This document shows positions 11,776 through 29,681 of a stretch of DNA of 34,369 nt, piece after piece (the stretch's first letter is position 1; every line of letters begins with the position of its first letter). The notes beneath the pieces are model-generated. The model was given only the letters and a program-made list of their open reading frames with translations, was not told the DNA's origin and searched no databases. The stretch is taken from positions 1 to 34,369 of the forward strand of contig DASRSD010000057.1 of the NCBI GenBank assembly GCA_035656635.1. The letters run 5' to 3'. The stretch comes from Pirellulales bacterium. GTDB lineage: Bacteria > Planctomycetota > Planctomycetia > Pirellulales > JADZDJ01. The position numbers were made by a program, and so were the translations under genes.

Positions 11776-14700
11776 GTGATGCGACAAATGCGTATTTTTA
11801 TCTGCGCGGCAATCGGAATTTGCATGCTCCTGTTGGCTCCCGTGCTGCGTGCCGCCGACGCCACGTTTGTCGGCGCGCTGGCTTTGGCGAGTGATGACAC
11901 GGTGGCCAAGCAATTGGGGCTTTCCGAGGACGTGCGATCAGCGCTAGATCGCTTGATTAAGCAGCGTGAAGATGACGCCTTGGAGTTGTCGCAACAAATT
12001 AAAGATCTTCCGAACGACGAACGTGTCGCTAAGCTGACGGCCTTTCGTGAGGCATCGGAACAAATGGGACTGAAACTGCTCACAAGCGATCAACAAAAAA
12101 AGCTGCAACAACTTCGATTAGCGCACGATGGCTTGGCTTCCCTGGCCGATTCAAATATTGCCAAACAGCTGCAACTTACTGCGGACGAGCAAGCCAAAAT
12201 TGCCGAGATTATGAAAGACCGCGAAAAGCAGCTTGCTCGCGCCACCCCGCAACAGCGCAAAGCGGTAACTGCCTATTACGAGCGTGCTCTGGCCGATGTG
12301 ATTACTCCGGAACAGCACACGCAGTGGGAATTGCTGGTGGGAGGCGCTAGCGCGGACATTGGCAAACCAATGGAAAGCGACACAAAGGTAAACGATGGCT
12401 CAGCGAAAGCCGCCGGCGTCGCTGCAACGGAGCCCAAATCGGACACGACCTCAGCAGCTAAATCGGGAAGCGCAGTGGCCGCATCGCCAGCCACCTCCTC
12501 GAATTCCGCTGCACCGGCCAACTCAAGTGCGTCTGCAACCAATGCCAGCAAGCCCTCGGGAAAATCAGCCGGCGGTTTGAAACGGACCGAAAAAGGTGAA
12601 ATCCTCTTCAATTTCCGCTATGCACCGTGGAAAGACGTCCTGGAGCTGTTTGCCGAAAAAGCTGATCTGTCGCTGGTAATGGATCAACCTCCGCCCGGCA
12701 CATTCAACTACCAAGATGACCGCGGGTACAGCATTCAAGATGCAATCGACGTTCTTAACAGCGTTTTGCTTACTCGCGATTTCACGCTGGTCCGCCGCGA
12801 CCGCATGCTGATGGTCGTCAATCTGAAAGACGGCATTCCGCCCAATGTCGTCCCCATGATTACGCCGGACGAATTGCCACAGCGGGGCAAATACGAATTA
12901 GTTTGCGTGGCTTTTCCAATCAATAAGCTCAGCGTGGATGAAGCAACGCAAATCATTAATCCCTTGCGCAGCTCTCAAGGCGCATTTCAGGGAACCATTG
13001 TCCCCTTAACGCAAGCCCACGAATTGTTAGTGACCGATACGGGCGGCAAGCTGCGCACCATGAAACAAATTCTCGATCGCAGCGAAAATCCGGAATTCCT
13101 CAATAGCGACGGGTTGCGGCACTTCGAAACGCATTACGCGACTCCCACGGACGTGCTTACCATCGCCAAGCAGTTGCTGAATATTCCTGCCGACCAAAAC
13201 GCAAACGCTTCCGGCTCCTTGCGGATCATGTTGGAGCCCGGCGGTAAGCGCATTCTTGCCAGCGGCCGGCCGGAAATGATCGATCGTTTTGCCGATATTA
13301 TCAAAATGTTGGATGTTCCTGGAAAAGGAACAGAAGCCTACGCCGACGAGCAATTGCAGTTTGAAGTGTATCCCATTACGTCGATCGATCCCAAGCTGGC
13401 GATGGCGGTCATGCAAACACTTTTGGCCGGTCATCCCGACGTGCGGCTAAGCCAGGTGCCGGACACGGGCACCTTGTTGGTATTAGCGCGCCCCAGCGAA
13501 CACGCCACAATTCGCGCGACGCTCAATCAAATGCAAAATGAGGGGCAGAAAGTCGATGTCATTCAACTTCGAGAGTTGGATCCTGAAAAGGCTGTCGTGG
13601 CCATCAATCGGCTGTTCTCCGGCGGCGACGAAAAATTGGCTGCCAACGCCCCGAAGGTGGAAGCGGAAACAACACTGCGGCGCCTCCTGGTGCGCGGCAC
13701 CGATGCTCAAGTGGCCCAAATCAAAGCGATGGTCGTCAAAATGGAAGGGCCCGAAACAGATATTGGCGGCGCTACGGATCGTGGCAATATTCGTATGCTC
13801 CAGCTTTCCGGCCGCCAGGGCCGCGCAGCATTGGAGCAGTTGCAGCAGCTTTGGCCGGCGACGCATGTAAATTCCATTCACGTCATTACCCCCAGCGGCG
13901 GCTATCCGGAAGTTCGCCCCAGCACTAATAGTGGATCGGGGTTGTCGCCCGGGGGCATTATCGACGAGCGCCGTCCTTCGCAATCGCCGGCGAACGAGGA
14001 ACCGCCCGCTTCATCTTCTTTGAATATTCCCAATCCAAAGGCCAGCGAAGCGGCCTCACAGACACCCATTTCCCCGGTCCGTCCTAGTAGTGTCGCCCCA
14101 TTGAATGGAAGTGAAGGGGATCATCATAAAACCACAAAACCAGATAACTTTGAAAATCAGAAATCGATCATCGTTCCACACGATCGCACCACGCGCATCA
14201 AAACGGCCCATTTGCAATTCGTCGATTACACGGAAGAAGCCAAGCCCACGGGCGATGTAAAGACGCCGCCTACGAGCACATCTGCTCCAGCAGCAGCCCC
14301 CACGACGAAAACTACTCCGGCAACCACACCGCCTGGCTCTTCAACTCCAAAAATGGAAGCCAAAGAAGCGCCCTCAAAAACAACTATTCCTCAGGGAGAA
14401 GAAAACAAAGATCAAACTGGCGCAGGACAAAGCTCCACGCTTAAACTCAAAGACAGCGACAAAGCCAGTGTCCCGGGAGCCCCCATTGTCATTGTGGTGG
14501 GCGCCAGCGGGGTGATGATTGCCTCAGAAGACAAAGACGCTCTGAACGATTTCGAAAAACTGCTCTCCGCGCTTGTCAGCAAACAATTTCAAGGACAGCG
14601 TGAGTACACCGTGTTTTATTTGAAGCACACTCATGCGTCTGTGGCGGCGGAATTGTTGGGACAAATTTTCGGCGGCGGCACCATCTCGGGCGGGAACGCG

Positions 14701-15717
14701 GGCGGAAATTTGGTCGGAGATTTTGCTTCTCGAGCAATTGGCGGCTTTGGCGGCGGATTAATCGGCGGCTTGCTGGGCGGCGATGGAGAGGGCAGCAATC
14801 CCGCGCCGGCTGGAATGGTCAGCGGGGCGCGCGGCACCGGCGGCCCAGTCGATATTGTGCCCGACACGCGGCTCAACGCCTTAATTGTTCAGGCCAGTCC
14901 GACCGATCTCGATACCATCGAGCAACTTCTCCACGTACTCGATCAACCCGATAGTCCGGAAGATGTGTCGCTAGTTACTCGGCCACGGATGATTCAGGTT
15001 TACAACACTTCCGCCGACGCAATTGCCACGAACCTCAAAGAACTTTATGCCGACCGCCTCAACGGAGCCGCTGGGCAGAACAGGCAAATCACTCCGCAAG
15101 ATTTTATTACCGCCATGCGCGGTGGCCGCGGTGGCCGGAACGGCGGCCAGAATGGGCAGCAAGATGAACAATCGAAAATGAGCATTAGCGTTGACCAGCG
15201 CAACAATCGCCTATTGGTAGACGCGCCCGACTCGCTGTACATCGAAGTCGAAAAGCTCGTGAAGGAACTGGATCAACCTTCGGAAGAAGATCGCGAAACC
15301 ACACGCTTAGTTACGCTGAAAGCCACCAACCCGGAATCGATGAAAACAATGCTACTTTCTGTGCTGGGCGATCAAGCACACACCAGTACTTCTTCCACGA
15401 CTTCCAGCACGTCTTCGACCTCGCGCACGGCAAACAACAATAATCCTGCGGCCGGACAAGTCCCCGGCACAAACGGATTTGGAGGACGCCAGCAATTCGG
15501 CGGGCTTGGCGGTTTTCCTGGCGGAGTTGGCGGTTTCGGCGCGCCCGGCGGATTTGGCGGCTTCGGTGGTCAAGGTCAAGGCGGCGGCGGATTCGGTCGT
15601 GGTGGCGGTGGTGGTGGCGGCGGCTTTGGCCGAGGCGGTGGAGGAGGCCAAGGGGGCGGTGGTTTTGGCCGCGGAGGCGGCGGTGGTCAACGAGGGGGCG
15701 GAGGCGGCGCCAATTAG
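11776..15717 (+). CDS. Spy-like/secretin N-domain multidomain protein lacking a secretin barrel
   Basis: The 1313-codon frame opens GTG-ATG-CGA-CAA-ATG, so the true start may be 11776, 11779 or 11788; no strong ribosome binding site decides. Residues 1-26 are a signal peptide (MRIFICAAIGICMLLLAP). Residues about 30-185 are helical and Spy/LTxxQ-like (LTADEQAKIAEIMKDRE). After an Ala/Ser/Pro linker, residues 275-350 look like an STN/N0 domain (ILFNFRYAPWKDVLELFAE), and at least five secretin N1-type domains follow up to about residue 660 and again at 900-1200, with typical NALIVQASPTDLDTIEQLL and NNRLLVDAPDSLYIEVEKL strands. Gly-rich inserts lie near 961-1028 and 1112-1125. It ends in a Gly/Phe-rich tail (about 1231-1313) and never reaches a barrel or the VPxLxxIPxLGxLF signature. 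Probably a periplasmic partner of the secretin; function unproven. Confidence 0.8.
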   Translation: MMRQMRIFICAAIGICMLLLAPVLRAADATFVGALALASDDTVAKQLGLSEDVRSALDRLIKQREDDALELSQQIKDLPNDERVAKLTAFREASEQMGLKLLTSDQQKKLQQLRLAHDGLASLADSNIAKQLQLTADEQAKIAEIMKDREKQLARATPQQRKAVTAYYERALADVITPEQHTQWELLVGGASADIGKPMESDTKVNDGSAKAAGVAATEPKSDTTSAAKSGSAVAASPATSSNSAAPANSSASATNASKPSGKSAGGLKRTEKGEILFNFRYAPWKDVLELFAEKADLSLVMDQPPPGTFNYQDDRGYSIQDAIDVLNSVLLTRDFTLVRRDRMLMVVNLKDGIPPNVVPMITPDELPQRGKYELVCVAFPINKLSVDEATQIINPLRSSQGAFQGTIVPLTQAHELLVTDTGGKLRTMKQILDRSENPEFLNSDGLRHFETHYATPTDVLTIAKQLLNIPADQNANASGSLRIMLEPGGKRILASGRPEMIDRFADIIKMLDVPGKGTEAYADEQLQFEVYPITSIDPKLAMAVMQTLLAGHPDVRLSQVPDTGTLLVLARPSEHATIRATLNQMQNEGQKVDVIQLRELDPEKAVVAINRLFSGGDEKLAANAPKVEAETTLRRLLVRGTDAQVAQIKAMVVKMEGPETDIGGATDRGNIRMLQLSGRQGRAALEQLQQLWPATHVNSIHVITPSGGYPEVRPSTNSGSGLSPGGIIDERRPSQSPANEEPPASSSLNIPNPKASEAASQTPISPVRPSSVAPLNGSEGDHHKTTKPDNFENQKSIIVPHDRTTRIKTAHLQFVDYTEEAKPTGDVKTPPTSTSAPAAAPTTKTTPATTPPGSSTPKMEAKEAPSKTTIPQGEENKDQTGAGQSSTLKLKDSDKASVPGAPIVIVVGASGVMIASEDKDALNDFEKLLSALVSKQFQGQREYTVFYLKHTHASVAAELLGQIFGGGTISGGNAGGNLVGDFASRAIGGFGGGLIGGLLGGDGEGSNPAPAGMVSGARGTGGPVDIVPDTRLNALIVQASPTDLDTIEQLLHVLDQPDSPEDVSLVTRPRMIQVYNTSADAIATNLKELYADRLNGAAGQNRQITPQDFITAMRGGRGGRNGGQNGQQDEQSKMSISVDQRNNRLLVDAPDSLYIEVEKLVKELDQPSEEDRETTRLVTLKATNPESMKTMLLSVLGDQAHTSTSSTTSSTSSTSRTANNNNPAAGQVPGTNGFGGRQQFGGLGGFPGGVGGFGAPGGFGGFGGQGQGGGGFGRGGGGGGGGFGRGGGGGQGGGGFGRGGGGGQRGGGGGAN
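15470..15714 (+). repeat. Gly/Phe-rich low-complexity coding tract
   Basis: The last 80 or so codons of the secretin-domain gene are built from GGFGG, GGGGFGR and GGGQGGGG units made of GGC/GGT/GGA codons. The tract has high local GC and is similar in style to tracts in the EF-hand, GspK, GspD and BON genes of this window. Confidence 0.8.
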
Positions 15718-15811: not shown

Positions 15812-17326
15812 CTACTTCTTCGGCGGTGATACTTTAAGAACTTCGTCCGGGGTGATTACCCCGTCGCCGTTCAGGTCGTATTTGGCAAATTCGGCCAGCT
15901 TTGCTTCGGTCCAAGTCGAGGCGAATTCGGACATGGTTACTTGTCCGTCTCCCTTGACATCATCGGCCGCAAACCAGTCGGGCAGTCCATCAGGGAGGCG
16001 CTCTTTCGGCGTCAAGAAATGTTTGCCTGTGCCGGAACTGGCGGACCGGCCGCCGGTATCTTGTCGTCTTCCGTACCCGCGACCACCTGGGTTTCCGCCC
16101 CCCGCATCGCTCGGCGCTGCGGCACTTGAACCACGATTGTTCGCCGCGGATGCCGCGGAATTGCTTTCGTCGGGACGATTCCAATTTTTTAATCCGTCAA
16201 CTAATTCATCGAGGGTAATTTTGCCATCGCCGTTTTTATCGTAACGGGCGGGGTTGCCGCTAATCATCGAATTCTGCGACCATTCCTCTTTTTCCAGCAC
16301 GCCGTTGCTGTTTTTATCGTACTGCTTCATCATGCTGGTCGCATAGCCGCGAATTTTGGCGTCTTCCGCTTGTGGATTAGAGCCACTCGACGAACCGGTG
16401 CTGGACGTGCTACTTGCAGTCCCGCTGCTGGTCGCAGAGGCGGCCTTGCCATCGCCGGTAAACGATGCGGTCACCATGGCCAATTCTTCGCCGAATCCGG
16501 GCACCGTGGGCGACGTGTCGCCAGCTGTTTCGCCAAACGGCGGAACCAGCGGGGGTGTTGAATCTTCTTTTTTGCTATCGCGAGAGGTCTCGTCGGAATT
16601 CGCAATGCCGCCGGGATTGCGCCCCTCATCGCCGCCCCGATTGAACCGTCCGCCTCCCCCTTGATTGCGCATTTGTTCGAAGGCTGCCGTTACTTTTTCA
16701 ATGGAAACTGGCGCGTCGGTGCTTAGGCCAGCACGTTGCAGCATGACTCGAGCTCGATCGTTGAGTTCACTCGGTTCGAGGATTCCATTGCCGTTGGCAT
16801 CAAGGCGACGGAGCATATCCGTGACATTATTCATGCCGCCGCCCCCGCCGAATCCACCACCTCCGAAGCCGCCTCCGCCTGGAAAGCCCCCTCCGCCAAA
16901 GCCACCCCCGCCAAAGCCTCCGCCGCCAAATCCTCCACCGCCTGGAAATCCACCCCCGCCTCCACCACGCCGACCAAATCCACCGCCGCCCGTTCCATCT
17001 GCCGGGGCCGCGCCACCAAACCCTCCACCACCAAAACCGCCTCCGCCAAACCCTCCGCCTCCAAACCCACCCCCGCCGAAGCCTCCGCCGTTAAATCCGC
17101 CCCCGCCGCGGCCCCCTCGACGTCCAAAGCCCCCGCCTTGTCCGGTGTCTCCCCCTTCATCGCGTTGGGCAGAACGGCCTCCCCGGCCACCACGATTGTC
17201 CCCGCCGGAATCCCCGGATTCCTGGCAAAAAGCATATCTTGCCGCCCCAACCATGGCAGCGATTACGAAAACTGTTAGTAATTGGTTAGAACGTGTCATC
17301 GTAGTTCGATTGTAACTCCAGAACAT
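15812..17326 (-). CDS. Exported EF-hand protein with long (GGGGF)n tract
   Basis: The 504-residue product has a signal peptide (MTRSNQLLTVFVIAAMVGA, cleaved near AFCQ) starting either at 17326 or at the in-frame ATG 17299. The first start has an AGGTGG site close upstream, so I keep it. Residues about 45-165 are an Arg/Gly then Gly/Phe-rich tract. Five EF-hand type calcium loops follow: DANGNGILEPSE (near 175), DKNSNGVLEKEE (near 337), DKNGDGKITLDE (near 360), DVKGDGQVTMSE (near 456) and DLNGDGVITPDE (near 484). Between them is a Ser/Thr/Ala-rich linker (about 290-330) and another Gly-rich stretch (400-435). EF-hand proteins with secretion signals are abundant in planctomycetes; a calcium-binding periplasmic or surface role is likely. 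It is convergent with the secretin-domain gene and divergent from the Spy-like gene. Confidence 0.83.
   Translation of the reverse strand: MFWSYNRTTMTRSNQLLTVFVIAAMVGAARYAFCQESGDSGGDNRGGRGGRSAQRDEGGDTGQGGGFGRRGGRGGGGFNGGGFGGGGFGGGGFGGGGFGGGGFGGAAPADGTGGGGFGRRGGGGGGFPGGGGFGGGGFGGGGFGGGGFPGGGGFGGGGFGGGGGMNNVTDMLRRLDANGNGILEPSELNDRARVMLQRAGLSTDAPVSIEKVTAAFEQMRNQGGGGRFNRGGDEGRNPGGIANSDETSRDSKKEDSTPPLVPPFGETAGDTSPTVPGFGEELAMVTASFTGDGKAASATSSGTASSTSSTGSSSGSNPQAEDAKIRGYATSMMKQYDKNSNGVLEKEEWSQNSMISGNPARYDKNGDGKITLDELVDGLKNWNRPDESNSAASAANNRGSSAAAPSDAGGGNPGGRGYGRRQDTGGRSASSGTGKHFLTPKERLPDGLPDWFAADDVKGDGQVTMSEFASTWTEAKLAEFAKYDLNGDGVITPDEVLKVSPPKK
16826..17180 (-). repeat. GGGGF tandem tract, 15-nt period
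   Basis: Inside the EF-hand gene, the minus strand encodes repeated GGGGF and GGGGGF units, many with a 15-nt spacing. The repeat is imperfect at the DNA level because glycine codons vary, which suggests selection on the protein rather than only recent slippage. Confidence 0.8.
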
Positions 17327-17406: not shown

Positions 17407-17560
17407 TTAGGCGGTTTGGGGTTTAAGTGGTTGCCCGCCGTGTAGGTGGGCGGCTGGAGATGCGCGCAGCGAAGAGGCACAGAAATCTGGTCGCTGCGGA
17501 GGGACCAGCAATGAACAATCCAGCGGATTAATGTCGCGAGAGGTTTTCCCAATACCCTGT

Positions 17561-17567
17561 GGAGGAG
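17561..17567 (+). promoter_or_regulatory. Ribosome binding site fixing the start at 17576
   Basis: GGAGGAG at 17561-17567, 8 nt before the ATG at 17576, is the strongest Shine-Dalgarno sequence of the window. It decides for this start over the in-frame ATG at 17531. Confidence 0.85.
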
Positions 17568-17575
17568 TTATCGTC

Positions 17576-18334
17576 ATGAGAACTAGCATTCATTTGTTGA
17601 AAGTTTGCGTAGCAGTAGCGGTGTGCGCTACGGTGGCGCAGGCCCTGGCCCAAGGCCAAGGCGGAGGTGGACGTCGCGGAGGTTTTGGCGGCGGCGGGTT
17701 TGGAGTTACCCCCCTCCGCTTGTTGCAAATTGAGCCCGTTCAAAAAGAACTCGCTTCATCTGACGACCAGAAGTCACAGGTTACCAAGTTAGCCGACGAT
17801 GCTCGCCAGGCCCTTGGTGGTGGCGGTGGCGGCGGCAACCGACCCACACAAGAACAAATGCAGCAAACCCGCGACGACCAAGCCAAGAAAGTCGCCGAAA
17901 TTCTGCTGCCCAATCAACAAGAGCGGTTGGATCAAATCTTGTTGCAACTGCAAGGCTCCCAAGCTCTGACCGAAACCAAGGTGGCCGAAAAGCTGCAATT
18001 AACCGACGATCAGAAAAAGCAGTTGACCGATCTGAACACCGAATATCAACAAAAGCGCCGCGATTTGTTCGGCGGTGGCGGCGGCGGTGGACGGCCTGAT
18101 CAAGATGCCATGAACAAATTGCGGACTGAACAAACCGACAAGGCCATGGCAATTTTAACTTCTGACCAAAAAGATCAGTTTACGAAGATGGAAGGCACCA
18201 AATTCGATCTCGATCCGTCGCTCCTCCGCGGTGGCATGGGTGGCGGCAATAATGGTGGCGGTCGCCGTAATCGCAATGGCGGCAACGGAGGTGGTAATAA
18301 TGGCGCCAAAGGCAACGGTCAGCCGGACGCCTGA
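17576..18334 (+). CDS. Small exported Spy-like (LTxxQ-type) Gly-rich protein
   Basis: From the ATG at 17576 the product has 252 residues: a signal peptide (MRTSIHLLKVCVAVAVCATV, cleaved near ALAQ), a short Gly/Arg/Phe segment, then two helical halves. Each half has heptad-like motifs typical of Spy/CpxP-like and planctomycete LTxxQ proteins: SSDDQKSQVTKLADDARQAL, and LQLTDDQKKQLTDLNTEYQQ followed by a final AILTSDQKDQFTKMEG. The C-terminus is a GGNNGGGRRNRNGG tail. The helical motifs resemble residues 30-185 of the secretin-domain protein at 11776, so the two may be paralogous modules. Spy-type proteins are periplasmic chaperones or metal/stress sensors in Escherichia coli; that role here is only inferred. 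Confidence 0.8.
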   Translation: MRTSIHLLKVCVAVAVCATVAQALAQGQGGGGRRGGFGGGGFGVTPLRLLQIEPVQKELASSDDQKSQVTKLADDARQALGGGGGGGNRPTQEQMQQTRDDQAKKVAEILLPNQQERLDQILLQLQGSQALTETKVAEKLQLTDDQKKQLTDLNTEYQQKRRDLFGGGGGGGRPDQDAMNKLRTEQTDKAMAILTSDQKDQFTKMEGTKFDLDPSLLRGGMGGGNNGGGRRNRNGGNGGGNNGAKGNGQPDA

Positions 18335-18570: not shown

Positions 18571-18659
18571 AAAAGTTTGGGGGCAGGCAAGTTGCATTGT
18601 GCTGGTCCCTCCTGATTCGTCCCTCCCCTCCCACACACATTTCGGTCACCCGCCCATTC

Positions 18660-20372
18660 ATGGATGCTGCTGATATTCTCGTTCGTCGCGGATTACTTAC
18701 GGATCGCCAACTGGCGGAGGTTCGCGCTGCGCAAAACAATGGCACACAGTTAGAGCAGTTGGCCGTGCAAATGGGCTATTGCACGGAGGAAGCAGTGCTG
18801 AAGGCGCTGGGCGCTGAGGTGGGCTTGGATTATATCGATTTGGCGGAAACGCAAATCGACTTGTCGCTGCTGAAAGATTTCCCTCCCAAGCTGCTTCATC
18901 GCCAGGCGCTGTTTCCGGTGCGCCGCGAGAACGGCAGTCTTGTAGTCGCCACGGCCGATCCCTTCGATTTGTACCCACTGGACGAACTCAGCGCGTCGAC
19001 CGGCTTAACGGTCGTTCCCGTGCTGGCCAGCCGCACCGAGATTGCGAAGCTCATCAAAACACATTTGGGGGTGGGGAGCGAAACCGTCAGCAGCTTGGTT
19101 TCGCAAAGCGACGACAACGTGGAGCTGTTGGGCGAAATTGAAACCGATGGCTCCGAGCTTTCCGAAATGGCGCAGGAGGCCAGCGTCATTCGGCTGGTCA
19201 ACGAAATTCTGCTGGAAGCCATCGAAACCAAAGCCAGCGACGTGCACATTGAACCGCAGGCGCATGGCCTGTGGATTCGTTATCGCATCGACGGCTTGTT
19301 GCATCCGCAGCCGGTGCCGCCGGAAATAACGCGCTTTCAAGCGGCGATTCTTAGCCGCTTGAAGATTATGGCACGGCTGAACATTGCCGAGAAGCGATTG
19401 CCGCAAGATGGTCGCATTAAGCTCCGCGTGCGCGGTCGAGAAATCGACGTCCGCGTTTCCGTGATTCCCATGATTCACGGCGAGGGCATCGTGATGCGTA
19501 TCCTCGACAAAGGCGCCATGGAGTTCAAGCTGCAAAAGTTGGGCATGGAAGATGATTTATACAAAAAATTCCAAGAGTTAATCGCCTTGCCGCATGGAAT
19601 CGTCTTGGTAACCGGTCCGACCGGCTCCGGAAAGACGACCACCCTGTATAGCGCCCTGTTGGAAATCCGCAGCGACGACACAAAAATCATCACCACCGAA
19701 GATCCCGTCGAATATCAGCTCGAGGGCATCAACCAAATTCAGGTGCACACCAAAATTGGGTTAACCTTCGCTGCCTCGCTAAGAAGCATTTTGCGGCATG
19801 ACCCAGATATTGTCCTGGTAGGCGAAATTCGCGACCAGGAAACCGCGGAAAACGCCATTCAAGCATCGCTTACGGGGCACTTGGTATTTAGCACCTTGCA
19901 CACCAACGATGCCGCCGGGGCTTACACCCGTATGATCGACATGGGGGTCGAGCCATTTCTTGTGGCCAGCACCGTCGAAGGAGTGATGGCGCAACGATTG
20001 GTGCGCCGGCTGTGCTCCCAATGCAAGGAGGCGTTTGTGCCCACCGAAACCGATTTGCCTTCTGACTTTCCGCGAGACAAACTGAAAGAAATCGGCGGGA
20101 AGTTATATCGCGCACGCGGCTGCCGGGCCTGCCGAAACTTTGGTTATGCCGGTCGAATGGGTATTTACGAATTGCTGATTACCACTAACAGAATTCGCCA
20201 ATTGGCCCACGATCGTTCCAGCACGTGGGAAATTACCAAAGCCGCGGTGGAGGACGGAATGATTTCGCTACGGCGCGACGGCTGGCGAAAAGTGCTTGCA
20301 GGCCGCACCAGCATTGATGAAGTAGCGACCGCTACGAAGGGAGACATCACGACATTTTCCGCGATGCATTAA
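18660..20372 (+). CDS. gspE: Type II secretion ATPase GspE
   Basis: The 570-residue product is a complete GspE/PilB-family AAA-type ATPase that powers pseudopilus assembly from the cytoplasmic side. Residues 1-150 form an MshEN/GspE N-domain ([20 protein letters not shown] onward). The ATPase core follows: Walker [10 protein letters not shown] at about 319-327, Asp box around ITTEDPVEY, Walker [13 protein letters not shown] at about 381-392, and the His box [16 protein letters not shown]. The tetracysteine zinc motif is intact (C452, C455, C488, C491). I chose the ATG at 18660 because it matches the family N-terminus; an upstream TTG at 18597 is in frame. No Shine-Dalgarno sequence is evident. 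It is the first gene of the T2SS operon. Confidence 0.95.
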
Positions 20373-20451: not shown

Positions 20452-21663
20452 ATGCCTGATTTTGCGTACATTGCCCGCGATACCACCGGAAAGAAAGTGA
20501 GCGGTCTGCTCACGGCGCCCAGCCGCCGCGATGTGGTGGCGACGCTTGGCAAACAATCGCTGTTTCCCCTGGAAGTAAAAGACGCACAGGCGGGAGCTGC
20601 AGTTGCACAAGTGCGGCGGGGGCGTAAAGTCAGGCCGCAAGTGATGGCGGTGGTTTACGCACAATTGGCCGATTTGCTTCGCAGCGGGGTGCCGCTGTTG
20701 CGAGCGCTGGAAGTGGTAAAAAATCAGAGTTCGCAAGCGGCCCTGAAGGAAGTGATGGCCGAGGTATATTCCGCCGTCGAAGATGGCACCAACATTGCCG
20801 ACGCCATGCAAGCCAACTCTCGCGCTTTTAGCGAAATGGCCATTAGCATGGTTCGGGCAGGAGCCGAAGGCGGATTTCTGGAAGATGCGTTGGCACGCGT
20901 GGCACAATTTACTGAGCAGCAGCAAGATTTGAAAAGCCGCACCAGCGGCGCGCTGGCCTACCCGGCGTTTTTGGCGGTGGTGGGCGTGGCCGTCGTGTTG
21001 GTGTTAGTGGTGTTCTTCGTCCCTAGATTCGAGACGTTGTTTGCACGCTTGCGCGACCGAGGAGAACTGCCGGCGTTGACGGATATTTTGCTCTGGGTTA
21101 GTCATACTCTGGGGCATTGGGGCTGGTTAGTGCTGATCGTGTTTGTCGGCGTAGGCGCCTTCGTTCGAAAGCGATTGTCGACCGAGGCCGGCCGTATTTG
21201 GAGCGATCGACTGAAATTGCGCTTGCCAGGCATCGGCCGAATTTTCCAAAATTTGGCCGTGGCACGCTTTTGCCGGGTATTGGGTACGTTATTGCACAAT
21301 GGCGTGCCGATTTTGCGGTCGCTGGAAATTTCCAGTGCTGCCGCCGGCAATCGGGTGTTGGAGGCTGCCATCAAGGAAGCTGCCGAGAACATTTCCGCCG
21401 GGCAATCGCTGGCTAAGCCCTTGGGGGCCAGCGGTTATTTTCCGCCAGAAGTCGTGGAAATGATTGCCGTGGCCGAGGAATCGAACACCCTGGAAGGCGT
21501 GTTGACCAATATTTCCGATTCGCTGGAAAAACGCACTTTTCGGCGGTTGGATTTGATCGTCCGGCTGTTAGAGCCTCTCATGCTGTTGGTGATGGCCGGA
21601 ATGGTCTTATTGGTGGTCATCGCGCTGCTGATGCCAGTGCTAAAGATGAGCACCACGATGTAA
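20452..21663 (+). CDS. gspF: Type II secretion inner-membrane platform protein GspF
   Basis: The 403-residue product is a normal-length GspF/PilC-family protein. It opens with the typical MPDFAYIARDTTGKKVSGLL, has two homologous cytoplasmic T2SSF domains (about 65-165 and 270-370; second copy VARFCRVLGTLLHNGVPILR), and three membrane segments near 165-189, 223-238 and 372-398. It would bind GspE and form the rotor-like platform core. It lies 79 bp after gspE; no clear ribosome binding site is seen before the ATG. Confidence 0.94.
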   Translation: MPDFAYIARDTTGKKVSGLLTAPSRRDVVATLGKQSLFPLEVKDAQAGAAVAQVRRGRKVRPQVMAVVYAQLADLLRSGVPLLRALEVVKNQSSQAALKEVMAEVYSAVEDGTNIADAMQANSRAFSEMAISMVRAGAEGGFLEDALARVAQFTEQQQDLKSRTSGALAYPAFLAVVGVAVVLVLVVFFVPRFETLFARLRDRGELPALTDILLWVSHTLGHWGWLVLIVFVGVGAFVRKRLSTEAGRIWSDRLKLRLPGIGRIFQNLAVARFCRVLGTLLHNGVPILRSLEISSAAAGNRVLEAAIKEAAENISAGQSLAKPLGASGYFPPEVVEMIAVAEESNTLEGVLTNISDSLEKRTFRRLDLIVRLLEPLMLLVMAGMVLLVVIALLMPVLKMSTTM

Positions 21664-21820
21664 AATCGAACTGTAAACTCGAACCCGAATTGCCAAACAT
21701 TTTGCCCAAATTCAAGCGCACAGTCCCGGTTTCCGGGGTTTAATGATTAGACGGTTTGGCAAGTTTCACTACCAACAAGTACACCCATCACGGGTTATCC
21801 AATCATCCATCAATTTTCAT

Positions 21821-21825
21821 GGGAG
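21821..21825 (+). promoter_or_regulatory. Ribosome binding site fixing the gspG start at 21834
   Basis: GGGAG at 21821-21825, 8 nt before the ATG at 21834, selects this start. The ATG at 21819 overlaps the site, and upstream in-frame starts lack one. Confidence 0.65.
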
Positions 21826-21833
21826 CTAAGACA

Positions 21834-22256
21834 ATGAGTGCCACGGGCGCACGCCGCCAAGATCGGGCGGCATTTACCTTGATCGAAGTGTTGTTGGTGC
21901 TGGTGATTCTCGTAATCATTGGTTCCATCGCGGTGACTAACATCATCGGAGCAAAAGCAAAGGCCGATCGTAATGCGGCGAAAGTGCAGGTCGATACCAT
22001 TTCCAAGGAGTGCGACCGCTTTGCCCTGGATATGGGCAGCTATCCCAACAGCCTGGAAATGCTGTTCACCAATCCGGGCGGCGCCAAAGCCAGCGAATGG
22101 GCCGGACCGTACTTGGATAAAGAGATTCCGTTGGATCCATGGAACAACCCGTACCAAATTCAATTTCCCGGGGGGCGGCATCCCGACCGAGTTGACATTT
22201 TCTCTTGGGGTCCCGACGGCCAGGCTGGCACGCAAGATGACATTTACAACGACTAA
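21834..22256 (+). CDS. gspG: Major pseudopilin GspG
   Basis: The 140-residue product is the major pseudopilin. It has a short basic leader, the class III prepilin signal FTLIEVLLVLVILVIIGSIA with Glu at +5, the conserved SIAVTNIIGAKAKADRNAAK helix, then the globular part with GSYPNSLEML, the GPYLDKEIPLDPWNNPY block and the calcium-site ending SWGPDGQAGTQDDIYND. The residue before the cleavage site is Ala (RAA^FTLIE) where most prepilins have Gly. It lies 170 bp after gspF, with a short CCCGG/CCGGG hairpin in between (about 21725-21737), so translation or transcript level of gspG could be set separately. Its end overlaps gspH by 20 bp. Confidence 0.94.
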   Translation: MSATGARRQDRAAFTLIEVLLVLVILVIIGSIAVTNIIGAKAKADRNAAKVQVDTISKECDRFALDMGSYPNSLEMLFTNPGGAKASEWAGPYLDKEIPLDPWNNPYQIQFPGGRHPDRVDIFSWGPDGQAGTQDDIYND

Positions 22257-22902
22257 CCCGGCAGTTGGTCGCCGCCGTGGCGGTTTCACACTCATCGAAT
22301 TGATGCTGGTGCTGTCGGTGTTGGTGGCGTTTGTTGCCCTGGCGTGGCCGACGATTACTCGGGCTTACGAAAGCAGCCGGCTAAAAGGCGCCGCGGAACA
22401 AATTCAGGCGGCGTTTGGGCATGCACGAATTCAAGCAATGACGAACGGCGTTGCGCAAGTCTTTCGCTTTGAGCCGCAAACGCCCCAATACACGGTTAGC
22501 GCTTTGCAGGACGGCACGGAAGCTACCGAAAGCGACGACAATTCCGCATCTACATCTTCCGTAACGATAACGCCAGCAGCAGGCGCAGCTTCTGCGACAG
22601 CCACGTCGACAATGTCGTCTAATGACAGCGGCGGGGGTTGTAACTATCAATTGCCCGACGGATATGCATTTATCGAAGGAAATCGTGTACTGGATGCGCG
22701 CGCCGCAGTTTCCGAAAGTGAAATTTCCGGTGACGGCTCCTCCACCACCACGCCGCCAATTCTGTTCTATCCCGACGGAACAACATCCGAAGCGACAGTG
22801 ACCATCGGCAATCAGTATGGAGGCCGAATTTCCGTTTCGCTCCGCGGCCTGACCGGCGTCGCCCGCATGAGCGACGTTTTCAGTGGGGAGCCCGCGCAAT
22901 GA
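22237..22902 (+). CDS. gspH: Minor pseudopilin GspH-like
   Basis: I place the start at the ATG 22237, inside the end of gspG, because it gives a short leader (MTFTTTNPAVGRRRGG) directly before FTLIELMLVLSVLVAFVALA, a prepilin signal with Gly at -1 and Glu at +5. The protein then has 221 residues, with a GspH-type layout (SSRLKGAAEQIQAAFGHARI, ANG-type VAQVFRFEPQT) and a C-terminal strand pattern ILFYPDGTTSEATVTI typical of GspH/FimT proteins. An unusual Ser/Thr/Ala-rich insert lies around residues 100-130. The order after gspG and the signal support the name; the N-terminal overlap implies translational coupling. Confidence 0.85.
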   Translation: MTFTTTNPAVGRRRGGFTLIELMLVLSVLVAFVALAWPTITRAYESSRLKGAAEQIQAAFGHARIQAMTNGVAQVFRFEPQTPQYTVSALQDGTEATESDDNSASTSSVTITPAAGAASATATSTMSSNDSGGGCNYQLPDGYAFIEGNRVLDARAAVSESEISGDGSSTTTPPILFYPDGTTSEATVTIGNQYGGRISVSLRGLTGVARMSDVFSGEPAQ

Positions 22903-23366
22903 AAAGGCCCTCTTCCACCCCCGGCCGCCCGCGCGATGGCTTCACGCTGCTGGAAGTCATTTTGTCGTTGGCAATTTTAGCCGGCGCGGTTGCCACATTG
23001 GGCGAATTAATTCGCAGCGGATTAGCAAATGCCCAATCTGCGCGCGATTTTACCCGGGCCAAAATGCTGTGCGAAGGAATCGAGGAACAAGTGGTGGCCG
23101 GCGCGATTTCTCCCAGCGGCAGTTCCGGCACGTGCGATGACGACCCGCGCTGGCTGTACTCAATTTCCAGCGAATCCGACCAACCTGGTTTGCTGAATCT
23201 GCAAATTACCGTCTCGAAAGATGTTCCGCCCGATCAGCACACCGTGCAATTCACTCTGTGGCGCTGGATGATTGATCCAAACATAGCTTCGGAATCGAAC
23301 GATACGACAGATACCAGCTCTTCCACGGGTACCGGCTCGACCAGCGGCACCGGCACGGGTGGCTAA
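22899..23366 (+). CDS. gspI: Minor pseudopilin GspI-like
   Basis: The 155-residue product starts at an ATGA overlap with gspH. It has a prepilin signal GFTLLEVILSLAILAGAVAT (Gly -1, Glu +5) and the GspI-like helix ELIRSGLANAQSARDFTRAK. The globular part is short (to about residue 127) and ends in a Ser/Thr/Gly tail (STGTGSTSGTGTGG). Its place in the operon between H and J supports GspI, a tip-complex pseudopilin. Confidence 0.83.
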   Translation: MKRPSSTPGRPRDGFTLLEVILSLAILAGAVATLGELIRSGLANAQSARDFTRAKMLCEGIEEQVVAGAISPSGSSGTCDDDPRWLYSISSESDQPGLLNLQITVSKDVPPDQHTVQFTLWRWMIDPNIASESNDTTDTSSSTGTGSTSGTGTGG

Positions 23367-23368
23367 AT

Positions 23369-24529
23369 ATGAAATGCCGCTGCAAATCTCCACGGGTTAG
23401 CCCACGAGCATTCGCTTTTCGCGTGATGCCGAAACGGGCCGGCGGCTTCACGTTACTGGAAGTGCTTCTGGCACTGGGATTGAGCGTGGTGGTCATTGGG
23501 TTAGTAGCAGCAGCGGTCAGAGGAACCCTGCGGTTGGTTGATACCGGCCGAACCAAGACGGAGCGCGATCAATTGGCCCGCGCCATTATGACCAAAATCA
23601 CAAGCGACGTCCGCGCCACGATCCGCTACGAGCCGTTCGATTCCAGTGGAATGATGACTTATCCCAAAACCAACAATTCCACCTCGTCGGGAAGCCAATC
23701 GGATGGCAGCACCACGGGGACTACCAGCACCACAAGCACCACAGGAAATACAGGAAGCAAAGGCAGCACCAGCAGCAAGGGAGGCAGCAGCTCATCCTCC
23801 GGAAACAGCAGCAGCGGAAGTGCCTCAAGCAGTTCGGGAAGCAGCTCCAGCTCCGGCAGCAGCAGTTCAACGACGCAAACCATCGCCGGCCTGGTCGGAG
23901 ATCAATATGGATTAATCGTCGATGTCGGGCGTCTGCCCCGAATTGACGAATACGCGCCCACCGACACTAGCGGCAACGGCAATTCTTCGGTGCCTCCCAG
24001 CGACGTGCGAACGATCACTTATTTTCTGGCTGGTTCCACGGCCCCGGTCTCGCAAGTCATTTCTTCCAGTAACAGTCCGGTGGACGGCTCCGGCTTAGTT
24101 CGCGCAGAAATGGACCATGCCTTTTGGGAATTTGCTAATTTAAACGGGCAATCGACGCTCGAAGGCGCAACCATTGTTGCACCGGAGGTTTTAGCGCTAG
24201 AGTTTTTGTACTTTGACGGCGCCGAGTGGGATACCTCTTGGGATACAACCCAAAACGGCGGACTGCCGCAGGCCATTCGAATTTCGATGATTATCGCCGA
24301 CCCTTCGCATCTTGGACAAGCCGATTACACGCCGCCGCAGTACGCGTCGATTTCCGATGCCGCCGCCCAAGATCCCGACAGCGTGTTCACCACCGTCGTA
24401 CGCCTTCCGGCCTGCGATTCCATTCAATTGCCCGGCAGCGGAGGCCAATCGTCGGGTTCCAGTGGTAGTTCAAGCTCCAGCTCCTCGACCGGCAGTAGTA
24501 CGGGAACAGGCGGCTCGCAAGGGCCGTAA
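23369..24529 (+). CDS. gspJ: Minor pseudopilin GspJ-like with Ser-rich insert
   Basis: The 386-residue product begins 2 nt after the gspI stop. Its prepilin signal is GGFTLLEVLLALGLSVVVIG (Gly -1, Glu +5), about 26 residues in; a start at 23426 (MPKRAGG) would give a more usual leader. Parts of the GspJ globular domain are seen at LARAIMTKITSDVRATIRYE and LEFLYFDGAEWDTSWD. The protein is longer than usual (typically about 200-240 residues) because of a Ser/Thr/Gly tract of about 70 residues (near 98-170) and a Ser/Gly tail (near 355-386). It would sit with I and K at the pseudopilus tip. Confidence 0.85.
   Translation: MKCRCKSPRVSPRAFAFRVMPKRAGGFTLLEVLLALGLSVVVIGLVAAAVRGTLRLVDTGRTKTERDQLARAIMTKITSDVRATIRYEPFDSSGMMTYPKTNNSTSSGSQSDGSTTGTTSTTSTTGNTGSKGSTSSKGGSSSSSGNSSSGSASSSSGSSSSSGSSSSTTQTIAGLVGDQYGLIVDVGRLPRIDEYAPTDTSGNGNSSVPPSDVRTITYFLAGSTAPVSQVISSSNSPVDGSGLVRAEMDHAFWEFANLNGQSTLEGATIVAPEVLALEFLYFDGAEWDTSWDTTQNGGLPQAIRISMIIADPSHLGQADYTPPQYASISDAAAQDPDSVFTTVVRLPACDSIQLPGSGGQSSGSSGSSSSSSSTGSSTGTGGSQGP
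23655..23880 (+). repeat. Ser/Thr/Gly-rich low-complexity tract in gspJ
   Basis: About 75 codons are nearly all Ser, Thr or Gly, mostly AGC, ACC, TCC and GGA codons, with GSSSS-type units. It interrupts the globular domain of the GspJ-like protein. Confidence 0.8.
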
Positions 24530-24544
24530 AGGAGAACCGCTTCC

Positions 24545-26872
24545 ATGAAACGTCCAATCGGAAAATTCACTGCACGCCGCGGGGCAGCGGCACAAGCTGC
24601 ACACCGCAAAGTTCATTCGCAAGTTGCTCTTCATCCAGAACGAAGCGCGCTGGTGTTGGTAATTGTGTTGGTTGTGGTGGCGGTATTGAGCCTGGCAGCA
24701 TACAGCTTTACTGAATTGATGCTCACCGAACATCAGGCCGCGCGGATTGATGGCCGTCAGGCCCAGGCCCGGGCTTTGGTGCAATCGGCAGCCGATTTTT
24801 TGCGCAACTATTTGTCGCAAACTTCCGACACCATCACACAGGCGGGCGGCTGCTACGATAATGCCGCACAATTTCAAAGCGTGCTGGTAATGGACGACGG
24901 CACTTCGCGCGGCCGCGGCCGGTTCAGCATCGTGGCTCCGAAAATCGAAAGCGGAACCGTTACCGGCGTGCGTTACGGTTTGGAAAACGAATCGGCCAAG
25001 CTAAACATCAACGCGCTGGTGCAAATGGATAAGCAGAACCCCGGCGTCGGAAGTCAATTGCTGATGACATTGCCAGGCATGGACGAAAACATTGCCGACG
25101 CAATTTTGGATTGGCTCGATCCGGACGATGACCCGCGCGAAAACGGCGCCGAAAGTGATTATTATGCGGCGCTAAGCCCTCCCTACGCACCGAAAAACGG
25201 CCCGCTCGACACGATCGAAGAGCTGCTGCTAGTTCGAGGCGTTACGCCGCAGTTGCTGTTTGGCGCGGATGCCAATCGCAATGGAATCATTGATGCCAAT
25301 GAACAGGCCAATGCCACATTGGCCGAAGGTTATGGGGCCGATCCGGAAATGAACCGTGGCTGGGCGGCATATCTAACGCTGCACGGCAAAGAGGCCAACG
25401 TTCAGCCCGATGGCACTCCAAAAATCAATTTGAACGACAAGAATTTGCAGGAGTTGCACGACAATTTGACGACTTACTTTGACGATGACTGGGTCAACTT
25501 TATTCTCGCCTACCGGATATACGGCGGTACTCAACCCACCTCCGGTTCCAGCGGATCCGGCGGTGGAAATTCGCCCAGCGGCGGCACCCCGCCCACTGGT
25601 CAAGGACAAACGCCTCCGGCGACGTTAAATCAACGCTCGTCGCCGTTTCAGTTTGTGTTTTTCCAAACTGGGGGAGGCGCAGCGGGCGGTGGCGGAGCGG
25701 CTGGCGGAGGTGGTGGAGCAGCTGGTGGCCGTGGCGCTGGTGGCGGAGGCGCTGGAGGCGCTGGAGGTGGTGGGGGTGGAGGTGGTGGGGGTGCCGCCGG
25801 CGGTGGTGGACGAGGCACTGGTGGCGCGGGCGGTGGAAAAGGTGGTTTTGGCGGCGGTAAAGGCGGGCAAGGGCAGGGCGGCGGCAAAGGAGGCCCTGGC
25901 GGCAAGGGTGGGGGCCGAGGCGGTTTCGGCGGCGGAAAAGGTGGGGGCGGTGGTCAAGGACAGTTCGGCGGAGGAAAGACGGGACGCACTGGTGGAACCG
26001 GCCGGACCGGCCGCGCCGGTGGAACCGGCAGCAATGGACCCGAAGTTTCTCCCAGCGACATTGACCTGGGCGATCTTTCCAAGGCACAACCAAAAGCCAA
26101 CATCAACAGCATACTGGATTTGATCGACGCGAAGGTTCAAGTTCCAAAAACAGGTGGCGGCACAAACAACGCCGCTAGTGCCAACGGGGGAACGACAACC
26201 GTTACTCTAAGCTGCCCGTTTACGGCCGAGCCCTCGGAAGCTGCGGAATACTTGCCCGAATTGGCCGATCACGTAACCACCAGCTCCGCGCAATCGTTCC
26301 CCGGCCGCATCAACATCAACCAAGCGCCGCGGACTTTGCTCTTAGGCATTCCCGGCATGACCAGCGACATGATCGATCAAATCCTGGCGCAGCGTGAACC
26401 CGAAAATACTGGCGATCATCCAGAACAGCGCTCCGAAACGTGGCTATATACCGACGGCATTGTCACGCTTACGGAAATGAAATCGATCATGCCGTACATC
26501 ACCGCCGGCGGAAGCGTTTACAGTGCGCAAATTGTCGGATATTTCGACGAAGGCGGAACCTCCAGCCGCGCTGAAGTCATTATCGACGCCACGCCCAGCA
26601 ACACCAGCCAGGCTGCCAGTGGCTCTTCTTCCAGCTCAACTGCCAGTAGTTCTTCCTCCACAGGAAGCAGTAATTCCAATTCTTCCAGCACCGGTTCGCA
26701 AAGCACAAGTGGAAGCAGCAGCGGGAGTTCGGCCAGCAGCACCGCCAGCAATTCCAGCAGTTCTACCGGTACAGGTACAACCGGCCTTCCCCGCATAGTA
26801 TTCTGGAGAGATATGACCCATTTGGGTCGCGGATTCCCGCTCGACACGCTCGGCGTCGGAGCAACTCAATAA
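24545..26872 (+). CDS. gspK: Minor pseudopilin GspK-like with large Gly-rich insert
   Basis: The 775-residue product starts at an ATG with AAAGGAG 10 nt upstream. The GspK family is usually about 300-330 residues. The N-terminal hydrophobic helix (ALVLVIVLVVVAVLSLAAYS) lacks the Glu +5, as is typical of GspK. Family blocks are seen at VRYGLENESAKLNINALVQ, MDENIADAILDWLDPDDDP and NGPLDTIEELLLVRGVTPQL, and the second helical part at FPGRININQAPRTLLLGIPG. Between them (about residues 355-500) is a Gly-rich tract with GGGRGGFGG and GGKGG units, and the end (about 680-755) is a Ser/Thr tract. A DANRNGIIDANE loop (near 240) resembles a calcium site. The pair of helical Pfam-type GspK domains supports the call. 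Confidence 0.88.
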   Translation: MKRPIGKFTARRGAAAQAAHRKVHSQVALHPERSALVLVIVLVVVAVLSLAAYSFTELMLTEHQAARIDGRQAQARALVQSAADFLRNYLSQTSDTITQAGGCYDNAAQFQSVLVMDDGTSRGRGRFSIVAPKIESGTVTGVRYGLENESAKLNINALVQMDKQNPGVGSQLLMTLPGMDENIADAILDWLDPDDDPRENGAESDYYAALSPPYAPKNGPLDTIEELLLVRGVTPQLLFGADANRNGIIDANEQANATLAEGYGADPEMNRGWAAYLTLHGKEANVQPDGTPKINLNDKNLQELHDNLTTYFDDDWVNFILAYRIYGGTQPTSGSSGSGGGNSPSGGTPPTGQGQTPPATLNQRSSPFQFVFFQTGGGAAGGGGAAGGGGGAAGGRGAGGGGAGGAGGGGGGGGGGAAGGGGRGTGGAGGGKGGFGGGKGGQGQGGGKGGPGGKGGGRGGFGGGKGGGGGQGQFGGGKTGRTGGTGRTGRAGGTGSNGPEVSPSDIDLGDLSKAQPKANINSILDLIDAKVQVPKTGGGTNNAASANGGTTTVTLSCPFTAEPSEAAEYLPELADHVTTSSAQSFPGRININQAPRTLLLGIPGMTSDMIDQILAQREPENTGDHPEQRSETWLYTDGIVTLTEMKSIMPYITAGGSVYSAQIVGYFDEGGTSSRAEVIIDATPSNTSQAASGSSSSSTASSSSSTGSSNSNSSSTGSQSTSGSSSGSSASSTASNSSSSTGTGTTGLPRIVFWRDMTHLGRGFPLDTLGVGATQ
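25670..26035 (+). repeat. Gly-rich low-complexity tract in gspK
   Basis: About 120 codons encode GGGGAAGG, GGKGG and GRTGGTG-type units that insert between the two family blocks of GspK. Local GC is very high and the reverse strand gives a poly-Pro frame, which is an artefact. Confidence 0.8.
26600..26795 (+). repeat. Ser/Thr-rich C-terminal tract in gspK
   Basis: About 65 codons near the 3' end of gspK encode SSSSTASSSS-type and GSSSGSSASS-type units, similar in style to the gspJ tract. Confidence 0.75.
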
Positions 26873-29668: not shown

Positions 29669-29675
29669 GGTGGAG
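29669..29675 (+). promoter_or_regulatory. Ribosome binding site for the start at 29682
   Basis: GGTGGAG at 29669-29675 lies 6 nt before the ATG at 29682, in frame with the BON-like gene. It supports a long form with about 40 residues before the signal peptide. Confidence 0.5.
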
Positions 29676-29681
29676 TTTTAC

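What the first reader, a model, noticed from the sequence alone, without database searches (positions are those of the whole stretch)
11776..15717. Barrel-less multi-N-domain secretin-like protein fused to a Spy-like helical domain
The frame has a signal peptide, a Spy/LTxxQ-like helical domain, an STN/N0-like domain and six or more secretin N-type domains in two blocks, then a Gly/Phe-rich tail, and no secretin barrel or signature. Secretin N-domains normally form periplasmic rings attached to a barrel. A soluble string of them could be a separate periplasmic ring, an adaptor that docks on the true GspD in this window, or a substrate selector. The Spy-like domain suggests chaperone activity at the ring entrance. 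This architecture does not match a standard T2SS or T4P component that I know.
Basis: partly seen in the sequence, partly recalled or inferred. Interest (0 to 1): 0.72.

Follow-up and report, generated by a model that had tools for sequence, protein, structure and literature searches.

The report
Barrel-less half of a bacterial secretin
Planctomycete bacteria carry, beside their protein-secretion machine, a conserved protein made of the same ring-building domains as the machine's outer-membrane pore but without the pore itself, which suggests that the long channel across the periplasm may be built from two proteins instead of one.

Summary
AlphaFold2 and profile searches give LTXXQ/Spy-like helices, one GspD-type N0 domain, seven N1-type domains and a terminal half-domain. 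There is no secretin barrel (0 of 37 family members by Pfam; none in any frame of the window except the true GspD). The "two blocks" are best read as one array with a ~190-residue disordered insert in the fifth N1-type domain. The gene lies upstream of gspE in a type II secretion (T2SS) cluster, and directly before it in several relatives. Of 57 related genomes, 37 of 38 with the T2SS marker GspK have a match at E<1e-30 and 0 of 19 without it do. N0 is its most conserved part. GspD of this order keeps the barrel but lacks N0 (0 of 23 examined); in another order of the class GspD still has N0 in 18 of 21, beside the barrel-less protein. My reading is a bipartite secretin: the barrel-less protein supplies the inner-membrane-facing N0 ring and further rings, GspD the outer rings and pore. 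Co-inheritance, linkage, fold and N0 absence are shown; ring formation and docking are inferred. No description was found in the papers searched.

The parts
11776..15717 (+). Barrel-less secretin-like protein, 1313 aa (called SECN in the report)
   Evidence: same-genus orthologue under purifying selection, dN/dS about 0.12 with synonymous sites near saturation
11776..11856 (+). Signal peptide-like N-terminus
   Evidence: read by eye; no signal-peptide program was run
11863..12342 (+). Helical LTXXQ/Spy-like domain (residues 30-189)
   Evidence: mostly pLDDT above 90; PDB profile top hits are E. coli Spy, E 4.6e-4; LTXXQ in 26 of 41 relatives at E<=0.1, not in the window copy
12601..12828 (+). 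N0 domain (residues 276-351)
   Evidence: 4jtm_A Z 11.1; the four best PDB profile hits are GspD N0, E 0.64 alone; collinear N0-N1-N2 match
12889..13092 (+). N1-type domain 1 (372-439)
13105..13320 (+). N1-type domain 2 (444-515)
   Evidence: Pfam
13345..13545 (+). N1-type domain 3 (524-590)
   Evidence: Pfam
13546..13752 (+). N1-type domain 4 (591-659)
   Evidence: Pfam
13780..14595 (+). N1-type domain 5, halves 669-707 and 899-940, with a disordered insert (about 708-895) in its alpha1-beta2 loop
   Evidence: order of elements; boundaries; packing of the two halves not inspected
14596..14952 (+). N1-type domain 6 with Gly-rich hydrophobic loop (941-1059)
   Evidence: Pfam
14977..15276 (+). 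N1-type domain 7 with Gly-rich loop (1068-1167)
15277..15396 (+). Conserved terminal half-domain (about 1168-1207)
15403..15714 (+). Gly/Phe-rich tail
15812..17326 (-). Gly-rich EF-hand protein between SECN and the T2SS genes
17531..18334 (+). LTXXQ (Spy-like) protein SPY2, related to the helical domain of SECN
18597..20372 (+). GspE ATPase
20452..21663 (+). GspF
21756..24529 (+). pseudopilins GspG, H, I, J
   Evidence: H, I, J; GspG by position and by eye only, and by conserved synteny
24545..26872 (+). GspK
   Evidence: PF21687, E 1.4e-21
26890..29561 (+). GspL-like protein (PilM_2, below cut-off) and GspM-position protein (no Pfam hit)
29670..31767 (.). BON-domain protein (+) and a conserved protein without Pfam hit (-), both recurring beside GspD
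31811..34369 (-). GspD secretin with barrel, cut at the contig end; its 5' part probably ends contig C50
   Evidence: C50 frame matches residues 1-397 of the same-genus GspD at 66%

Best explanation
SECN is a dedicated component of the T2SS of these planctomycetes: the N-module of a secretin made as a separate, probably exported protein. It most likely assembles, as N-domains do in GspD, into stacked periplasmic rings coaxial with GspD. Its N0 ring would face the inner-membrane platform, and its far end meet the N-terminal rings of GspD. In the window's order GspD keeps the barrel and many N1-type domains but has no N0, so the N0 contact with the platform would rest on SECN alone. Together the two would form an unusually long channel for substrate and pseudopilus across a wide periplasm. 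Shown here: fold of the single chain, absence of a barrel, gene linkage, co-inheritance with T2SS, strongest conservation in N0, absence of N0 from GspD. Inferred: export, ring formation, coaxial stacking, orientation, docking partner. The helical LTXXQ domain is a lineage-variable addition of unknown role.
For: Fold: N0 plus seven N1-type domains. Barrel: 0 of 37 family members by Pfam, the window protein included; best E 0.52 among the SECN ORFs of the 80 named loci. Co-inheritance: E<1e-30 in 37 of 38 GspK+ genomes and 0 of 19 GspK- (Fisher p 3e-14). In a 195-genome phylum sample E<=1e-15 in 45 of 100 GspK+ genomes and 0 of 95 GspK- (p 2e-16); 18 of the 45 lie outside the class, and most of those examined were N0-bearing GspD itself. 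Linkage: SECN-GspE-F-G-H-I-J-K-L-M-GspD in one run in another order (L249, L250, L253-L256; GspH not recognised in L250 and L256); SECN within 10 kb of GspK in 15 of 20 genomes there, all of one family (my reading); GspE in 16 of 80 named loci, GspE or GspD in 19 of 80. N0: same-genus identity 93%, other domains 78-86%, linkers 39-49%; dN/dS 0.034; mean column identity 68% (24 rows) against 57% (24) and 50% (20). N0 on GspD: 0 of 23 in this order, 18 of 21 in the other order.
Against: No complex was modelled and no experiment exists; ring formation is inferred from homology. 61 of 80 named loci show neither GspE nor GspD in the flank, though many contigs are short (of 31 with 5 kb on both sides, 11 do), and in 5 of 20 genomes of the other order SECN is far from GspK. 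That order has SECN although most of its GspD keep N0, so SECN is not simply a lost half of GspD, and the tree does not settle its origin. In at least four genomes (G006, G011, G016, G055) the best match is only 28-32% identical and may be a paralogue. The N0-only profile reaches only E 0.64 in the PDB, Pfam STN / gspD_N0 do not match SECN, and the N0/STN fold is shared with other proteins such as TonB receptors and VirB7-like proteins (Z 7-9). pTM of the whole model is 0.35, so relative placement of domains is unknown. No GspC passed its cut-off in 57 genomes, so the partner of N0 is unknown.
Confidence: 0.55

Rival explanations
1. SECN is a T2SS-associated soluble adaptor that loads or chaperones substrates: the LTXXQ domain holds exoproteins and the N-domains bind the GspD vestibule, without forming a full ring.
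For: LTXXQ/Spy-like domain in SECN and a second LTXXQ protein in the cluster; long disordered linkers.
Against: The helical domain is not detected in 31 of 80 relatives, some truncated, whereas N0 is the most conserved part. Foldseek does not recover Spy. An array with N0 first is what a ring-former would need.
Confidence: 0.2
2. SECN takes the place of GspC: a bridge between platform and secretin rather than a channel wall.
For: In relatives SECN stands directly before gspE (L171-L173, L181), where gspC-gspD stand in classical operons (classical order recalled); no T2SSC match above cut-off in 57 genomes, one below it (G012).
Against: N0 is the secretin side of the GspC-GspD contact (PMC3169554, abstract; PMC6882859, passages), and the secondary structure of the model shows no all-beta HR-like domain. 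A Pfam miss does not exclude a diverged GspC.
Confidence: 0.12
3. SECN is a periplasmic multi-domain scaffold, related by descent to secretins but working outside the channel (for example at the cell wall or with surface proteins).
For: Barrel-less paralogues lie away from recognised T2SS genes, including one apparently split over contigs C84/C17 of this genome and a 588-aa protein on C150.
Against: Co-inheritance with GspK and recurring position in the T2SS cluster.
Confidence: 0.1
4. SECN is a decaying duplicate of gspD.
For: Lack of the barrel; the terminal half-domain looks like a secretin cut in an N-domain loop.
Against: Open frames in relatives from two orders, dN/dS about 0.12 over the whole and 0.034 in N0, recurring cluster position.
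Confidence: 0.02

Closest known systems
T2SS secretin GspD (PulD, XcpQ, ETEC GspD), N0-N1-N2-N3 module
   Same: N0 fold (4jtm_A Z 11.1), collinear N0-N1-N2, T2SS gene context
   Different: No C-terminal barrel; seven N1-type domains instead of three; LTXXQ domain in front; long insert in domain five
Planctomycete GspD of this order (window 31811-34369; L213, L106 and others)
   Same: Same N1-type domain family, same cluster
   Different: Has the barrel (23 of 23) but no N0 (0 of 23)
Deinococcus PilQ-type secretin (8co1)
   Same: Profile and Foldseek matches of N1-type domains; more than three periplasmic N-rings (recalled)
   Different: Single polypeptide with barrel
E. coli Spy / LTXXQ family (PF07813)
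   Same: LTXXQ-type helical sequence profile
   Different: Monomer model has no Foldseek match to Spy

Membership tests
Secretin (PF00263) | C-terminal secretin barrel domain | tested here: not met
Secretin | N1-type (Secretin_N, KH-like) domains in tandem | tested here: met
Secretin | N0 domain at the start of the array | tested here: met
   Pfam STN/gspD_N0 not matched
Secretin | 12- to 15-fold ring assembly | not testable with these tools
   no complex prediction or experiment
T2SS component | Encoded with and co-inherited with T2SS core genes | tested here: met
T2SS component | Needed for secretion | not testable with these tools
   experiment required
GspC (PF11356) | T2SSC domain | tested here: not met
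   no PF11356 match in the protein (E<=1) and none in its genome
Spy / LTXXQ | LTXXQ-family sequence profile | tested here: met
   met for the family; the window copy alone does not match PF07813 and matches NCBI's Spy model only at E 0.013
Spy / LTXXQ | Spy cradle fold and chaperone activity | tested here: inconclusive
   one search found no match; activity not testable

The most novel reading that the evidence does not exclude
Pirellulales-type planctomycetes build a bipartite secretin: the periplasmic tube is made of two coaxial proteins, a soluble N0-bearing stack (8 domains) and a barrel-bearing stack that has lost N0 (7 N1-type domains by Pfam, about 9 by eye), roughly 15-17 rings in all. 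Other planctomycete lineages lengthen the same tube in one giant GspD with at least 42 N-domains. Extending the N-ring array would be the phylum's way to span its wide periplasm.
Probability: 0.42. Interest if true: 0.82.

Novelty: new variant of a known kind. Interest (0 to 1): 0.66.

Why it matters
Known secretins carry N-rings and barrel on one polypeptide. A conserved, T2SS-linked protein with the complete N-module but no barrel, beside a GspD without N0, would show that the two modules can be separate gene products. It gives a natural system for asking how an N0 ring couples to the inner-membrane platform. It also bears on how T2SS works in Planctomycetes, for which an extremely enlarged periplasm is reported in one species and many secreted polysaccharide-degrading enzymes are predicted (PMC11131199, passages seen). 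A knock-out in a cultivable planctomycete would test it directly.

Tried and rejected
Frameshifted barrel downstream: rejected. 'Two separate blocks of N-domains': replaced by one array with an insert in domain five. Simple fission of GspD: not supported, because another order of the class has N0 on both proteins, and the tree of N0-N1-N2 leaves the origin open, with long branches (72 of 164 sequences used: the window protein, 45 sampled barrel-less ones and all 26 with both N0 and barrel; one 'barrel-less' row, L264_3_1907, is a GspD cut by the locus end, and genes fetched twice were not removed). My first count of N0 on GspD of that order (13 of 13) was biased, because those loci were picked by their N0 match; I repeated it on GspD found by sequence in all 20 genomes and use 18 of 21. 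The three without N0 (G163, one of two in G228, G232) are also the three closest to the window's GspD (50-54% identity). The loci were likewise picked by an N0-N1-N2 match. G217 (L239) seemed to show a naturally split GspD; relatives L269 and L270 have both parts in one frame, so frameshift and recent split cannot be told apart and I do not use it. Pfam STN and gspD_N0 do not detect the N0 of SECN. Foldseek with the helical domain alone found nothing at E<=0.001. The first genome-contig scan with a single protein found no relative; the alignment did. Literature searches showed no title or abstract on barrel-less secretin-like proteins in Planctomycetes or on giant secretins; the library lacks most subscription papers. 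In one search mainly model residues 242-560 were tested; other domains rest and on profiles. No GspD structure was predicted: both AlphaFold jobs went to SECN.
Full report
Observation. The frame at 11776-15717 is intact, 1313 aa. Pfam gives five Secretin_N stretches and nothing else at E<=1. The secretin barrel is absent from it and from the rest of the contig except GspD: a six-frame search of the whole genome finds the barrel on this contig only at 32105-32623(-), and a barrel HMM built from 23 GspD agrees. The window is the whole contig C57, so GspD at 31811-34369 is cut by the contig end; its first ~400 residues are probably at the end of contig C50 (66% identity to residues 1-397 of the same-genus GspD).

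Anatomy. AlphaFold2 on residues 30-1229 with 51 sequences (mean pLDDT 71, pTM 0.35) gives well-folded domains joined by disordered linkers: a helical domain (30-189); N0 (276-351); N1-type domains at 372-439, 444-515, 524-590 and 591-659; one domain whose first half is 669-707 and second half 899-940; two more with Gly-rich loops (941-1059, 1068-1167); a conserved terminal half-domain; and a Gly-rich tail (boundaries). The 'gap between two blocks' thus sits in the alpha1-beta2 loop of the fifth N1-type domain, the same loop that is Gly-rich in domains six and seven. This is read from the order of elements; I did not inspect the packing of the two halves. N0 superposes on solved GspD N0 (4jtm_A, Z 11.1, rmsd 2.1 over 79 residues) and N0-N3 on PulD (6hcg_A, Z 13.9, with a large rmsd of 18.8, so the relative placement of domains differs); weaker matches of N0 to TonB receptors, VirB7-like and phage proteins (Z 7-9) show that this fold class is not unique to secretins. 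Profile searches give the collinear N0-N1-N2 of XcpQ/GspD; with N0 alone the four best chains of 177,635 distinct sequences are GspD N0, though at E 0.64 only.

Helical domain. Its profile finds E. coli Spy first in the PDB (E 4.6e-4, over about 49 residues). LTXXQ matches 26 of 41 relatives at E<=0.1 but not the window copy, and only 1 of 37 whole proteins at E<=0.001. It matches the LTXXQ protein SPY2 of the same cluster (E 1.2e-15; SPY2 is over the Pfam cut-off). The monomer model has no PDB match at E<=0.001. The domain is found in 49 of 80 relatives, some of the rest being truncated. 'Spy-like' is therefore fair as a sequence statement; chaperone activity is not shown.

Relatives. The 24-sequence alignment finds 177 relatives in one genome per species; the 80 kept have planctomycete titles, apart from one titled only 'bacterium'. 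Of 37 family members (window protein included, a few cut by contig ends, some paralogues) 37 have Secretin_N and 0 the barrel. Among the SECN ORFs of the 80 named loci the best barrel score is E 0.52; over 135 SECN-labelled ORFs, some the same gene fetched twice, it is E 0.5. Lengths reach 3259 aa in this order (L093). The same-genus orthologue gives dN/dS about 0.12 overall, 0.034 in N0 and 0.21-0.23 in the linkers, with synonymous sites near saturation.

Context. The window holds GspE, F, G, H, I, J, K, a GspL-like and a GspM-position protein, a BON protein, a conserved unknown and GspD. An EF-hand protein and SPY2 lie between SECN and gspE. GspE-containing T2SS genes flank SECN in 10 of the 40 loci fetched from relatives (L063, L068, L072, L085, L087, L089-L093). 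Among the 80 named loci 16 have GspE and 3 GspD in the flank, 19 either; of the 31 with at least 5 kb on both sides, 11. In another order of the class the run is SECN-GspE-F-G-H-I-J-K-L-M-GspD (L249, L250, L253-L256, with GspH not recognised in L250 and L256), and SECN lies within 10 kb of GspK in 15 of 20 genomes, all of one family (my reading).

Co-inheritance. In 57 related genomes, GspK (PF21687) is found in 38. A SECN match at E<1e-30 is found in 37 of these 38, the exception being G024 (88% complete, 6% contaminated), and in 0 of the 19 without GspK, whose best is E 1.4e-8 (Fisher p 3e-14). In at least four of the 37 (G006, G011, G016, G055) the match is only 28-32% identical and may be a paralogue. 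In 195 genomes of the phylum, 45 of 100 GspK+ genomes match at E<=1e-15 and 0 of 95 GspK- do, whose best is E 8.8e-13 (p 2e-16). 27 of the 45 are of the window's order and class; of the other 18, those I examined are mostly N0-bearing GspD itself.

Division of labour. In 23 GspD of this order (21 from the 57 genomes and two named records; others were not examined) the barrel is present in 23 and N0 in none (best E 0.5 with filters off). In the other order, 21 GspD found by sequence similarity in 20 genomes have N0 in 18; 20 have the barrel in the same ORF and one, G205, is cut by a contig end. The three without N0 (G163, one of two in G228, G232) are the three most similar to the window's GspD (50-54%). 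In other classes 13 of 15 GspD-labelled ORFs have both N0 and barrel, but those loci had been chosen by an N0-N1-N2 match. So SECN exists beside an N0-bearing GspD in one order, and in the window's order GspD lacks N0 while SECN keeps it as its most conserved part. That GspD lost N0, rather than never had it, is inferred from this distribution. No GspC family member passes the cut-off in 57 genomes; one is below it.

Mechanism. In known T2SS the N0 ring at the base of GspD is the contact for the inner-membrane platform through GspC (PMC3169554, abstract; PMC6882859, passages seen, which also give about 20 nm reach into the periplasm for the PulD complex). By homology SECN should provide such a base, with seven further rings, and GspD the rest plus the pore. 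This is inference. Shown are fold, linkage, co-inheritance, constraint and absence of N0 from GspD. Not shown are export, ring formation, stacking, orientation and need for secretion. An extreme enlargement of the periplasm is reported for Planctopirus limnophila (PMC11131199, passage, citing others), which would give a reason for long arrays; this too is inference.

Novelty. Nine full-text searches returned nothing whose listing describes barrel-less secretin-like T2SS proteins or giant secretins in Planctomycetes. Beyond the listings I saw one abstract and passages of three papers. SECN is not a secretin by membership, because the barrel was tested and is missing, but it probably works like the N-module of one. 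I file it as a new variant of a known kind. The recount described above (18 of 21 in place of a biased 13 of 13; 45 in place of 46) did not change my odds.

Noticed in passing
L241 (4999 aa), L238 (4213 aa), L240 (5073 aa), L247 (4830 aa), L246 (3575 aa): Giant GspD secretins in other classes of the phylum: N0 near the start and the barrel at the end of one frame, with 42 Secretin_N stretches each in L241 and L238 (the other three not counted). A paper search showed no such case.
   Followed up: partly
L239:2632-5543: GspD apparently split in the loop of an N-domain into two overlapping ORFs (N0 part, then barrel part that starts with a signal-peptide-like stretch, by eye). Relatives L269 and L270 are fused, so a frameshift is possible.
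   Followed up: partly
L274, L252 (both from G228): One genome seems to have two T2SS sets: two SECN, two GspK and two GspD, one GspD with N0 and one without.
   Followed up: no
L102 (contig C84), L026 (contig C17), L025:2458-4224 (contig C150): Further barrel-less Secretin_N proteins in the window's own genome: a SECN paralogue probably split over C84/C17 (one frame in the same genus at L097) and a 588-aa protein next to a kinase-like ORF (by eye).
   Followed up: no
window:15812-17326: Gly-rich EF-hand protein on the opposite strand; 13 of 80 named loci have a similar ORF near SECN. It may be a T2SS substrate or a calcium-dependent part.
   Followed up: no
window:4126-11162: Two autotransporter-repeat (PATR) proteins, one 1689 aa with weak dockerin and PEP-CTERM matches, next to the T2SS cluster; possible secreted or sorted surface proteins.
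   Followed up: no
window:14749-14781: Glycine-zipper-like hydrophobic loop (GGGLIGGLLGG) in N1-type domain six; a similar Gly-rich loop is seen in most of the 20 aligned relatives, not in L082. It could form a constriction in a ring.
   Followed up: no
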